Source: Micrasema longulum (Eukaryota; Arthropoda; Insecta; Trichoptera; Brachycentridae). From it: a stretch of 64,000 nt of DNA. The notes beneath the pieces were generated by a model that worked only from the letters and a program-made list of their open reading frames with translations, made no database searches and was not told the DNA's origin. The position numbers and the translations under genes were made by a program. Below are positions 30,259 through 56,706 of the stretch, piece after piece. Location of the stretch: positions 147,335 through 211,334 of the forward strand of contig JAGVSM010001217.1 in NCBI GenBank assembly GCA_022494885.1, given 5' to 3'. Each line of letters opens with the position of its first letter. The first letter of the stretch is position 1.

Positions 30259-30940
30259 ATAGAATTAAAAATATTCCAGAAATCGCATCCGCGCATCAAA
30301 CAGAACGCGACTAAACTACTCTTTAAGGAGTAGTTGAACGTTTTGACCCATTGTTTTCTTTGTAGACGTCGCTCAGTACGCAACTCCCGATTTGAATTCA
30401 ACTATGCCGTGTTGTGTCGTTTTAAAGTAGATAAATACTAAAGAAACAGGATGGGATCACATTTCATGTGTAAGTAGCAAATGCATTACTTAAAAGTTTA
30501 ATTATTTTTCCATCTGTCAGATTATCAAAGAAGACAACGCCGTGTTGGACATTTGACCGACATTATCTTTAAAACATCAAATATTATTTGACATGATATA
30601 AAAACTTTGGCTTTATGTAAAATAAAATTTGTTAAATTTTTAAATTTAAAAGTTCATTCTTTTAATTACTCTTATTAAATGGCCCTTTACTTATCTACTC
30701 TGTTGTGTCAATTAATGTTTCCGCGTGTACAACAAAATTTTAGAGATATCAAAAAATTGCCTTTTTTTAAATATAATTATCTTACATTTGTGTTATTATT
30801 ATAATCGAGATCTGGCAACATTACGCGGCGACTTTACGCACGCGCGCGGCGAAAGTGGGGCAAAGTGGGCGTTTTTTACACACGGTCCAAAGTATTCAAA
30901 TACGATTTTACGCTCCTTCTGGACTATTCTTAATTCTAAG
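30259..30940 (+). mobile_element. P-superfamily-like THAP element, copy A (deleted)
   Basis: A 682-bp unit with inverted ends: left CATAGAATTAAAAATATTCC and right the complement of a near-identical end (…TTCTAAG at 30940). Flanks TTTACACC and TTTACTAA share 5 of 8 bases. Inside, an ATG near 30,411 begins MPCCVV, followed by KETG and TTTCATGTGTAAGT, which resembles a THAP-domain first exon (C2CH, GITFH) running into a splice donor. The reading frame is broken by indels and a stop. It shares its whole plan with two copies at 54-56 kb. Confidence 0.65.
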
Positions 30941-31248
30941 TTTACTAAAAATTCTAGTAACATTTTAAATTTTAAACTTCTTATATTCTTATTTTAAACG
31001 TTTTAATGCGGAGGTACTCCGTATTTTTTTCTATTTTTAAAATTGTCTTAGATGTATTTACCTACGGGCAAAATCCTAAATGCCAAAAAAATATATTAAA
31101 TATGGAGGTTCGAAAAACTTATAAACCACGAAAAAAATAGAAAGATCACAAGGACTTGTATAAACAAGAAATCACTCAACGTACAACAAGCAGATTGTTT
31201 AGCCTGAAGCATGAAAGATTGGGTTTGAGTGAACTTTTGTACTCGAGT

Positions 31249-53200: not shown

Positions 53201-56200
53201 TGAACATAGACGCCGTCTATATGTATACAATTTTTTTTTGTTTGTTTTTCAAAATATGTCATTTTTTGCTTAAGGTAACAAGAAGTTACAGCACCGTCTT
53301 CAGAAGGATTTTTTAGCACTGTCTTTTAAGAGTTCACGGAATAAGGAAGTTTTAAAAGTTTCAACTGTATCCAGTAATATAATATGATTTTTTTTAAAAG
53401 GTTCACAAATTGTATTAAATAATATCGTATCAGTGTCAGATGGAGTTTTGTTATTATGTAATAAAAAAAAACACTAAAATCATTTTTCAGTTCATACGAG
53501 GATCTTTAAAAATTCAATCAATAAAAAACAAATATGTAATTACAATTCAAATAAGAACAAGTGTTGGCCATTTAACAGCCATCATGAACTCCTCAGACTC
53601 TCTGCGACCAATTTCACATGTGACTCTTACAACATTTCCAAGGTTCAGGTATTATATTATATAGCTTTTGTCCTATGTAGGAGTATTGTCTCTGTGCTAA
53701 AGAAGTTCTAACCATTTGCCGGGAAATCAGATCGCTACTGCAACTCCGAGTCTCATAATGATAAGAAACTGATGGATGTGTATCTCTGTTAGTGTGAGTG
53801 TCCACCTCTGCCCTCATTATGATACATACCATTTAACAGTTGCGTACTGAATCCAAAATCACCTAACTTTACCACCGTGGGGGAGGAATAAAACACATTT
53901 TCTGCTTTTATATCTCTGTGAATAAATCCTTTGGTATGCTGAAAGTAAGCAAAGGCAATGGGTCAGTCAATTTATTAATTACTAGATTAATATACAGACA
54001 TAAATTAATATATTCGAACCATAGAATTATAATATACCAGAAGGCGCGTAGAACTAAGTTTGTATACATCGTACTGCATTCATGAATTGGCCCCGTAATT
54101 TTGCCAGACCGTGAACAATATACACGAATATAAGATAATTTTGTGTTATGTTATGTTTTAGCACAAAAATATTTTACTGACTGGACTATAAAAAAACAGG
54201 TACTTTTATTAGGCAAACGGAAAAAAATTTGTTGAATAATCATTTAATAATTAAGTAAATTAATACCATTTAATATTATACTAAGGCTTATTAAAAGAAA
54301 GCCGGGTAAAAAATTCTACTACCTCTGGCAATACTAACAAAAGTCCATCTTGTTTTATTTCGCAATCTGACAGATGCTATAATCAAATTCTTGAAAAATA
54401 TTATTTGTGAATTCGCTACTTACACATGAAATGGGATCCCACCTATTCCCATTTAATGCCAGTAGTATGTTGACACTTAAAAACGACAAAACACGGCATA
54501 ATTGAATTTAAATCAGCAGTAAGTTGCGTACTAAGTGACTTCTTTAGAGTAAGTAAAGGCCAAAACGTAAAACGACTAATTTATGAGTAGTTTAGTCGGC
54601 TTCAGTTTGATGCGGTTTCTGGATCGTTATAATTTTATGATTCTAACACATGAAAATGAAAATTGAGTTTTAAAAAAAAAGGGAAATTTTCTCAAATCAT
54701 TATGATTGAAAAGCATGCAAACAATTCATACTATCAATAATAAAAAATCTAGTTAATTCTAACTAATTATGTGGGTTTTAAAATTATTTACAGTAAGATT
54801 ATCGTATCATGCATATGCTTGAAATTGTTTATGAAAGTCCGGGACTTTTTGGAAAACTATTATTTCACAATTTGGTAAATATCATACATCTTTTTTCACA
54901 GTGATGTAGGTATGCCATGTATTATGCTGAACAACAAAGTAGTCACTTCAAATCAATTTGTGTGGTGATTTTTTACCATTTTATGGCAAAGTAATAGGCA
55001 TTTGAATAAGCTTCCGCTGTTTCCCGACAGGTGGTGTTAATTTAGGTTTTCTAGATTGGGCAATACTACATCCAACTTTATTGTGAACCTCCACCATTCA
55101 GCTTGAAACGAAAGTATATGTTTTTCTGCCGAAGAGAAGGCAACTTAATTTTTTCATAGTGTTAAACATGTCGAATTTCGTGGTAAAAAAAGAATATATG
55201 TTGACAATTTTACAACATTACTTTTTTTTATCTGCCGCTGTACCACACATAATTCGTGTGGAGACTTGCGGCGACCATGCTCTGTGGGAAACAACATCCA
55301 GAGATTGGTTTTGACGCTTCAAAACTAATGATTTTGAAGTTGAAGATAAAGGGCGCTCTGGCCATAGAATTAAGAATAGTCCAGAAGGAGCGTAGAATCA
55401 TATTTGAATACATCGTAATGTGTCCACTAATCCCCCCACTCAGCCCTACTTTCACCGCGCGCATGCTTGAAGTCGCCGCGTAATGTTGCCAGATCGCGAA
55501 AAATATAACATACACAAACATAAAATAATTTTTAATAATATAGTATTTGAAAAAAAGGGAATTTGTTTATTTCTCTAAAACCTTATTGTACACGCGCAAA
55601 CATTGATTGACACAACATAGTAGATAAGTAAAGGGTCATTTAATAAGAGTAATTTAATTAATGAACTTGAAATGAAACAAATTTTATTTTACATAAAGCG
55701 AATATTTTTATGTCATGTTAAATAATATATGATAAGTAATGAGTCTACTTATACTACTGGGGCCATATTGTACTACTCGTATTTGTGCCACTGCAAATAT
55801 TACACAAATTTATTGTACACGCGGAAACATTGATTGACACAACAGAGTAGAAAAATATAGGGTCATTTAATAAGATTAATTGAATTAATGAACTTTGAAC
55901 TTAAAAAATTAAACAAATTTTATTTTACATAAAGCGGATATTTTTATGTCATGTTAAATAGTATTTGATGCCATTATGTTTTAAAGATAATATTGGTTAA
56001 ATGTCCACCACGTCGTTGTTTAATCCGAAAGGTCCAATTTCCGTTAGTTCTCTCATTAGATGAGCAAAGTAGCGTAAAAAAATTGACTACCCTGGCAACA
56101 CTAACAAAATGTCCATTTTGTTTTATTGACAATCTGACAGATGGAAAAATAATTAAATTTTTAAGTAATGCATTTGCTGCTTTACATGCATTTGCTAATT

Positions 56201-56706
56201 ACACATGAAATGTGATCCCGTCCTGTTTCTTTAAGATCTCAGCAGTGCTTTTACACTTTAAATGACACAACACGGCATAGTTTGAAAGAAAAAGCTTGAA
56301 ATGGAAGCATTACTAGATGAAGACCCATGTCAGATGCAAAATGAACTTGCAGATACATTAACGGTTGATCACACAAAACAGTTGACAAACGTTTAAAAGC
56401 ATAAGGAAAGTGGGCGCCGTACAAATTGAAGCCGAGAGACGTCGAACGAAAAACAGCAAGAACTTATTCAATTCCCCAATCGTTTGCGGTGATTTTTCAC
56501 TTTTTTATAGTTATGCCTATATTTATATATATGAGTTAAATGGACAAACCATGTGTTTAACAGCGTGAACAACTTGTAAAAATAGTTTTTTTGAAACGTT
56601 TTCAGTCAGTCTTCCTTCCATAGATATTTTATTGAAAAGCTCCCCATCGGGAGCATATTCCGTTACTAAATGTATTTTACTGTAAGTCTCCACTACTTCA
56701 AATAAC
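50244..56706 (-). CDS. NIM1K: NIM1-type AMPK-related Ser/Thr kinase, 3' four exons (5' partial)
   Basis: Minus-strand exons in transcript order: 56706-56550, 53938-53830, 52657-52415 and 51046-50244. Phases match at each junction and give about 436 aa up to the stop. Exon one visible starts in the N-lobe (LFEVVETYSKIHLVTEYA). The second has the catalytic loop HRDIKAENV and DFGFST. The third has the activation-loop end LNTFCGSPPYAAPELF, an APE motif, and VDVWALGILLYFMVTGTMPF. The last closes the C-lobe (IDDIIDSEWF) and continues through a low-complexity linker to YGITSKMLCDSIG...IIGIYRVVMHRV, a block shared with vertebrate NIM1K. All catalytic residues seen are intact, so it should be active. 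The activation-loop Thr in NTFCGSPPY sits where LKB1 phosphorylates its relatives. The protein ends CVIL, a possible CaaX lipidation motif. The Gly-rich loop and the beta-3 Lys must lie right of the window. Confidence 0.88.
51629..51725 (-). repeat. tRNA-derived SINE head in a NIM1K intron
   Basis: On the minus strand, TAGGCGCAGTTGGTTAAACG (box A) and GGGTTCGAGTTGCG (box B) form a tRNA-like half-kilobase family head. It directly precedes a repeat-A copy. Confidence 0.55.
51745..52080 (+). repeat. Repeat family A, copy (plus) in a NIM1K intron
   Basis: Shares AAAATTAGAGCATTGAATTG, ACTAGTGACATCACGG and the AAAATTACAAAACCTT segment with the other copies. Confidence 0.55.
52081..52135 (+). repeat. 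Retrotransposon 3' UTR fragment
   Basis: Complement of the 35320-35395 block (GACTCCCACCACTAAGAATA), abutting repeat A. Confidence 0.45.
53640..53826 (-). pseudogene. Non-LTR ORF2 C-terminal fragment in a NIM1K intron
   Basis: Minus strand reads HYETRSCSSDLISRQMVRTS and LAQRQYSYIGQKLYNIIPE, the usual YNTR…YxGxKLYNxLP tail. It starts only a few bases after the donor of the HRD/DFG exon. Confidence 0.55.
54020..54639 (-). mobile_element. P-superfamily-like THAP element, copy C (deleted)
   Basis: A 620-bp unit with terminal CATAGAATT-type inverted ends, flanked by ATTCGAAC (54012-54019) and ATTCTAAC (54640-54647). That is an 8-bp duplication with one mismatch, the size known for P elements. 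The minus strand carries an ATG followed by PCFVVFKC, then a GGIPFH-like stretch in another frame and GTAAGT. The transposase beyond the THAP exon is missing. It sits in a NIM1K intron. Confidence 0.7.
55363..56292 (-). mobile_element. P-superfamily-like THAP element, copy B (5'-truncated, internal duplication)
   Basis: The right-hand terminal repeat begins at 55363 (CATAGAATTAAGAATAGTCC). The minus strand runs from an ATG near 56,279 (MPCCVI), through a KCKST-like Cys segment and ITFH, to the shared AT-rich interior. A block of about 155 bp is present twice (about 55584-55735 and 55810-55965). The 5' terminal repeat is absent, and the sequence changes to a mariner fragment near 56,292. It lies in a NIM1K intron. 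Confidence 0.6.
56301..56475 (+). pseudogene. mariner-like transposase fragment
   Basis: Reads MEALLDEDPCQMQNELADTL and later a broken block resembling the N-terminal helix-turn-helix of mariner transposases of the irritans type (LDEDPCQTQ-like, then a KPRDVERR-like stretch). Stops and frame changes interrupt it, and only about 60 codons remain. It abuts P-like copy B. Confidence 0.6.

What the first reader, a model, noticed from the sequence alone, without database searches (positions are those of the whole stretch)
30259..56292. A family of short P-like elements that all keep a THAP start exon and its splice donor
Three units (30259-30940, 54020-54639, 55363-56292) share CATAGAATTAAG-type ends and the same internal order. 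Each contains an ATG giving MPC[CF]V, a Cys/Lys segment, an ITFH or IPFH block and GTAAGT, as expected of the first exon of a THAP-domain transposase. Yet the rest of the transposase is gone. One copy has an 8-bp duplication, as in P elements. Non-autonomous elements that retain a DNA-binding exon and donor could make short or fused THAP proteins, as P-element repressors do. This is inference.
Basis: partly seen in the sequence, partly recalled or inferred. Interest (0 to 1): 0.75.

Follow-up and report, generated by a model that had tools for sequence, protein, structure and literature searches.

The report
Abundant miniature P elements with THAP remnant
Three short stretches here are decayed copies of a very numerous miniature jumping element that still carries the start of a gene for a THAP DNA-binding domain; that gene piece looks like a leftover of a missing parent element rather than something kept for its product.

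Summary
A (30258-30940) and B (54020-54639) are short inverted-repeat elements. C (55363-56282) has lost its exon-side end and has no GTAAGT. All three first exons are broken. The family is huge: the 24-bp end occurs 8187 times genome-wide (at most 2 mismatches; reversed control 0). Of 32 copies with both ends (A among them), 12 have a perfect 8-bp target duplication and 21 at least 7 of 8.

The intron lies in phase 2 in the codon after FH, as in human THAP1 and in a P-type gene elsewhere in this genome.

The functional idea is not supported: stops in exon 1 match neutral placement (9 of 28 copies; simulated 8.3 +/- 2.5), and a 258-bp copy without the exon has transposed. No full-length partner, P or hAT, was found, so the P assignment is inference. 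Verdict: a large non-autonomous P-type (P-MITE) family, a new member of a known kind. KP-like THAP-only products from the rarer two-exon copies remain possible but unshown.

The parts
30258..30940 (+). Copy A, 683-bp non-autonomous element with both terminal repeats (30258-30281, 30917-30940)
   Evidence: 84.8% and 89.5% identical to family consensus 1-310 and 409-819
30250..30257 (.). Left flank of A, TTTACACC; right flank 30941-30948 TTTACTAA; 5 of 8 identical, a weak target duplication
30404..30469 (+). Broken THAP exon 1 of A (deletion, stop at codon 9)
30470..30475 (+). GTAAGT, predicted splice donor of A
54020..54639 (-). Copy B, 620-bp element with both (diverged) terminal repeats; another internal deletion of the same family
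   Evidence: matches consensus 35-362 and 652-723/764-821
54012..54019 (.). Target duplication of B, ATTCGAAC; right copy 54640-54647 ATTCTAAC (7 of 8)
54424..54499 (-). Broken THAP exon 1 of B (ATG at 54499 reading down; stop and indels)
54418..54423 (-). GTAAGT, predicted splice donor of B
   Evidence: position 217 of B
55363..56282 (-). Copy C, lacking its exon-side terminal repeat; one terminal repeat at 55363-55386
55583..55969 (.). Internal duplication in C (55583-55733 and 55810-55969, 87%)
56203..56278 (-). Broken THAP exon 1 of C (ATG at 56278 reading down; frameshift; GTAATT instead of GTAAGT follows)
   Evidence: lower limit approximate
55258..55362 (+). Mariner-like fragment left of C
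   Evidence: PF17906 E 0.0028, below its cut-off
56291..56425 (+). Mariner-like fragment right of C; C probably sits in an old mariner
   Evidence: Mos1 E 0.2, weak; limits approximate

Best explanation
The three units are decayed members of one very abundant family of non-autonomous cut-and-paste elements of the P type (a P-MITE family). A parent element, not found in this assembly, had a gene whose THAP domain was split by an intron right after its FH motif. Internal deletions removed the rest: one class (about 1.0-1.35 kb) kept both THAP exons, the commonest class seen (about 805 bp) kept exon 1 only, and A, B and a 258-bp copy are further deletions. A transposase supplied in trans recognised the 24-bp ends and made 8-bp target duplications. 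Exon 1 persists because it lies about 147-224 bp from one end and came along with that end, not because its product is used. Shown: ends, 8-bp duplications, copy number, second THAP exon, no detectable protein-level constraint on exon 1. Inferred: a P-type transposase in trans, use of the splice sites, order of deletions.
For: 8187 end matches vs 0 for the reversed control; 9 of 14 readable end pairs spaced 795-807 bp (from the 100 sites listed); 12 of 32 copies with perfect and 21 of 32 with at least 7 of 8 target duplications; second exon and complete THAP domain in longer copies; the same split THAP on contig C2363 with P-type RNase H and GBD matches 1.9-2.2 kb downstream on the same strand; stops in 9 of 28 exons vs 8.3 +/- 2.5 expected; exon 1 8.6% diverged, intron 9.0%, end repeat 3.7%; exon-free 258-bp copy with perfect duplication.
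Against: No full-length partner: 0 contigs shared between the 107 exon-2 contigs and 59 contigs with P-type domains, and no family sequence in 30 P-domain loci (best E 0.018). Of 12 perfect duplications 7 read nTnnnnAn, a pattern I recall for hAT as well. The synonymous share in exon 1 is slightly above the neutral simulation (0.264 vs 0.229 +/- 0.031, P 0.14), and exon 2 changes least at codon positions 1 and 2 (4.3, 4.5, 5.8%, a set picked by protein similarity). A's duplication is only 5 of 8.
Confidence: 0.82

Rival explanations
1. KP-like regulators: the THAP exon is kept because spliced short or fused THAP proteins regulate the family, as P-element repressors do.
For: Some two-exon copies are open through both exons with a canonical donor: L062 and L072 of 25 aligned, also L063 and L093. 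KP and the 66-kDa protein of P are precedents (PMC7776569, passages).
Against: Stops and codon positions in exon 1 fit neutral decay. The commonest class lacks exon 2. The exon is absent from L091. The three window copies are broken. No transcript data.
Confidence: 0.06
2. The family belongs to hAT (also 8-bp duplications, some THAP-bearing relatives by recall) rather than P.
For: 8-bp duplications alone do not separate the two; 7 of 12 perfect duplications read nTnnnnAn (hAT pattern recalled). Many hAT-domain matches exist here (145; 150 scored of 480 candidates).
Against: No hAT domain lies inside a family element: 5 contigs shared with exon-2 contigs; the nearest are 3.8 kb away on the other strand (C3355, outside the ends of L076) and 6.0 kb away on the upstream side (C2859). 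The same split THAP precedes P-type domains on C2363.
Confidence: 0.08
3. The THAP exons were captured from a host THAP gene by an unrelated MITE.
For: Contig C1481 has five THAP-like matches in a row, so THAP genes may be numerous here.
Against: Exon 1 sits at a fixed place near the 5' end across size classes, as expected of an element's own gene. Older relatives carry the same exon 2 and second donor.
Confidence: 0.04

Closest known systems
P-MITEs of Anopheles gambiae (Quesneville et al. 2006, PMC1562414; passages read)
   Same: Short non-autonomous elements with terminal repeats, 8-bp duplications, high copy number, attributed to P transposase in trans
   Different: Those share 114-198 bp in total with their P masters and have unrelated centres; here about 300 bp of 5' sequence with a THAP exon is kept, end counts point to thousands of copies instead of 44-571, and no master was found
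KP and other internally deleted Drosophila P elements (PMC7776569; passages read)
   Same: Internal deletions leaving THAP coding sequence and both ends; 8-bp duplications
   Different: KP makes a known 207-aa repressor; here exon 1 alone remains in the commonest class and no product is known
Internally deleted zebrafish P-like (THAP9-related) elements (PMC7776569; passages read)
   Same: Multiple deleted copies with inverted repeats and 8-bp duplications
   Different: A full-length relative is known there
Human THAP1 gene structure (PMC4049367, passages; PDB 2jtg alignment)
   Same: Exon 1 ends at c.71, the second base of codon 24 just after H23: same place and phase as the predicted intron here
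   Different: THAP1 is a host gene

Membership tests
P superfamily (non-autonomous) | 8-bp target site duplication | tested here: met
   12 of 32 perfect, 21 of 32 at least 7 of 8
P superfamily (non-autonomous) | Terminal inverted repeats beginning CA | tested here: met
   CATAGAATTAAGAATAGTCCAGAA, 8187 sites; the CA start as a P feature is recalled
P superfamily (non-autonomous) | THAP DNA-binding domain at the transposase N-terminus | tested here: met
   PF05485 E 1.9e-11 for L062's two exons; only exon 1 remains in the window copies
P superfamily (non-autonomous) | Full-length relative with P-type RNase H and GTP-binding domains between the same ends | tested here: inconclusive
   None found, but candidate lists are capped and the assembly is in 5184 contigs; a related split-THAP P-type gene exists on C2363
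MITE | Short, both terminal repeats, high copy number, no transposase | tested here: met
hAT | hAT dimerisation domain in a relative with the same ends | tested here: inconclusive
   145 matches in the genome, none inside a family element seen here; 150 of 480 candidates scored
Kolobok (THAP-bearing, TTAA duplications by recall) | 4-bp TTAA target duplication | tested here: not met
   8-bp duplications of varied sequence
KP-like repressor | A translated THAP-containing product that represses transposition | not testable with these tools
   No RNA or protein data; two-exon copies L062, L072, L063, L093 are open

The most novel reading that the evidence does not exclude
The rarer two-exon copies that are still open through the whole THAP domain (L062, L072, L063, L093), two of which also keep a second splice donor (L063, L093), make spliced THAP-only or THAP-host fusion proteins that bind the thousands of dispersed element ends, giving this genome a self-made regulator with a ready network of binding sites.
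Probability: 0.06. Interest if true: 0.7.

Novelty: new member of a known kind. Interest (0 to 1): 0.3.

Why it matters
It documents a very abundant P-type MITE family whose size classes (about 1.34 kb, 0.8 kb, 0.68 kb, 0.26 kb) preserve stages in the loss of a transposase gene. It also shows a THAP domain split at the same base in these elements, in a P-type gene of the same genome and in human THAP1, which bears on whether host THAP genes and P transposases share one split ancestor. For the question asked it is mainly a caution: an exon near a transposon end need not be kept for its product.

Tried and rejected
Partner search. P-type GBD and RNase H_N models gave 65 and 51 matches; their 59 contigs share none with the 107 exon-2 contigs. 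A second exon-2 search added C2363, where a 40%-identical THAP exon lies upstream of P-type domains; it is a relative, not the partner, since no family sequence is in L035 or L092. The recent 761-aa P-type family (99% over 5.4 kb between two copies) has no family sequence in 9.5 kb around two copies (one 21-bp chance match, E 0.035); its true ends were not settled. The 5,004-bp element on C5168 has other ends. Tails of L065, L069, L070, L073, L080-L083 and L062, L063, L090, L093 showed no transposase-sized frame, judged by eye. hAT.

A protein search with a THAP query padded to transposase length found nothing (6 candidates, none scored). A short frame in the 3' part (NWTSRIKQRRGG...) had no Pfam match. 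Papers: the end sequence is in none; some searches gave P-MITE and P-element papers but I saw none describing this family in the listings; two searches gave nothing on the THAP intron. I do not claim the intron link is unreported. A genome search with copy B and a count of the exon-1 motif did not complete.
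Full report
What is in the window. Copy A is 30258-30940 (+), copy B 54020-54639 (-), copy C 55363-56282 (-). They are clearly related (A-C E 8e-94 and 7e-63, A-B 1e-33). A and B have two ends of the CATAGAATTA type; C has one, because about 142 bp with its exon-side end are missing. A's flanks are 5 of 8 identical, B's 7 of 8. The ATG, Cys/Lys stretch and ITFH/IPFH block are in all three; GTAAGT is in A and B, while C reads GTAATT. None of the three exons is intact. 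C lies between two fragments that look like parts of a mariner transposase (PF17906 E 0.0028, below cut-off; Mos1 E 0.2), so it probably jumped into an old mariner; both matches are weak.

Genome context. The window is part of an unnamed assembly of 584 Mb in 5184 contigs; that it is an animal is inferred from its elements. A DNA search with A gave 4576 first-look candidates, 40 scored, 74 aligned pieces. The 24-bp end with at most 2 mismatches occurs 8187 times (4117 forward, 4070 reverse), against 0 for the reversed control. Of these only 100 sites were listed; in them I read 14 facing pairs, spaced 805, 258, 806, 805, 795, 807, 803, 721, 806, 744, 803, 969, 805 and 724 bp. The commonest form seen is thus about 805 bp.

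Target duplications. In the first set of 18 copies with both ends (A included; taken from 30 loci), 6 have a perfect 8-bp duplication, 6 have 7 of 8 and 6 have 2-6 of 8. Of 23 sequences, 9 were partial and dropped and two (L004, L020) were already counted; of the other 12, 4 are perfect, 3 have 7 of 8 and 5 have 1-6. L091 is perfect, and L093 is perfect if its first base has changed. Total 12 perfect and 21 with at least 7, of 32.

The THAP reading. The majority consensus of 14 copies reads MPCCVVLKCRNTAGILKKQDGITFHV. Longer copies (L004 1227 bp, L020 1334 bp, L062 1341 bp, L093 about 1060 bp) contain a second exon after TTAG. Joined in frame it gives a THAP domain: L062, a single unedited copy, PF05485 E 1.9e-11; class consensus 1.2e-13; L090's exon 2 alone 2.9e-10; L004 with X at its stop 4.8e-10. 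Exon 1 alone has no Pfam match. The best solved relatives are THAP2 (4.9e-10) and THAP1 (4.4e-5). The 805-bp class equals the longer class without about 510 internal bp that include exon 2. B joins consensus 35-362 to 652-821; L091 (258 bp) keeps consensus 1-60 and 624-821 only.

Intron position. The predicted donor splits the codon after FH in phase 2 (CAT GT|GTAAGT). Human THAP1 exon 1 ends at c.71 (PMC4049367, passages), the second base of codon 24, just after H23 as numbered in the alignment. On contig C2363 a THAP gene reads MVKCAVPICKN...NDISFHR|FPKSRE..., split at the same base by a 310-bp intron; its exon 1 has one stop. P-type RNase H_N and GBD matches lie 1.9 and 2.2 kb downstream on the same strand. 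This ties the split THAP to P-type genes here. It compares predicted gene structures; there is no RNA.

Is the exon kept for its product? Against the consensus, exon 1 changes at 9.2, 7.1 and 9.4% at codon positions 1, 2 and 3; exon 1 is 8.6% diverged, the intron 9.0%, upstream parts 6.6-7.4%, the end repeat 3.7% (all 46 aligned pieces). In the 28 copies that cover exon 1 (A, B and C among them), 9 have a stop against 8.3 +/- 2.5 when the same number of changes is placed at random; the synonymous share is 0.264 against 0.229 +/- 0.031, P 0.14. Nine of 28 have ATG, no indel and no stop, and 4 of those have GTAAGT. For the two-exon class 25 sequences were aligned; 20 of them were taken from the best protein matches and so are biased towards intact frames. 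Exon 2 shows 4.3, 4.5 and 5.8% at the three positions in its first 46 codons, a slight excess at position 3 that the selection could make. Both exons open with a canonical donor: L062 and L072 of 25, and by direct reading the older element in L063 and L093. The evidence is for neutral decay of copies after insertion, with the lowest divergence at the ends. The 258-bp copy shows that the exon is not needed in cis for movement.

The missing partner. P-type transposases are present: 65 GBD and 51 RNase H_N matches, including a recent family with a 761-aa frame and a 5,004-bp element with a 957-aa frame, ends CAAGGCCTACTACATACAGGCC and duplication GTTTGACG. None was seen with this family's ends or exon: 0 shared contigs between 107 and 59 (the 40% relative on C2363 came later), and no family sequence in 30 GBD loci (best E 0.018). 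hAT domains are also common (145 matches); five contigs are shared with exon 2, none with the domain inside a family element as far as coordinates show. The parent may be lost, unassembled or too decayed. The P assignment rests on THAP, CA ends, 8-bp duplications and the split-THAP link; 7 of 12 perfect duplications also read nTnnnnAn, which does not separate P from hAT.

How it works, most likely. A P-type transposase supplied in trans bound the ends and moved copies by cut and paste, and incomplete repair produced internal deletions (as discussed for P-MITEs in PMC1562414, passages; inference here). Exon 1 was inside the 5' piece that survived in the successful founder. KP-like repression (PMC7776569, passages) is possible for two-exon copies but not shown.

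Verdict. Observation partly confirmed; P-like THAP-start reading supported; functional reading not supported for these copies. A new, very abundant member of the known class of P-MITEs.

Noticed in passing
57710-64000 (-): A BEL/Pao-type LTR retrotransposon with one open frame of 1784 aa (58595-63949; PF05380 E 2.8e-45) and 98% identical 48-nt direct repeats at 57710-57757 and 63953-64000, the second cut by the window end.
   Followed up: no
29731-29897, 38187-38357, 57460-57629, inverted at 47588-47775: A repeat of about 170 bp in four copies, by eye like a tRNA-derived SINE.
   Followed up: no
33632-33877: A near-perfect hairpin: 84-nt arms 94% complementary 11 nt apart, with outer 37-nt arms 100% complementary.
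   Followed up: no
34299-34688 (+) and 50244-51080 (-): Open frames that look by eye like kinase gene exons; the first has a weak match to FUS3 (E 0.006), the second no Pfam or PDB match.
   Followed up: partly
G000:C1481, 7.8-118 kb (- strand); part in L090: Five THAP-like exons on one strand within 110 kb, four of them only 35-42% identical to the query from the first: perhaps a THAP gene array.
   Followed up: partly
L039-L060, L084, L085: A P-type transposase family with copies about 99% identical and frames up to 761 aa, apparently amplified recently.
   Followed up: partly
L089:1256-6259: A 5,004-bp P-type element with a perfect GTTTGACG duplication and a 957-aa frame, ends unrelated to the MITE family.
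   Followed up: partly
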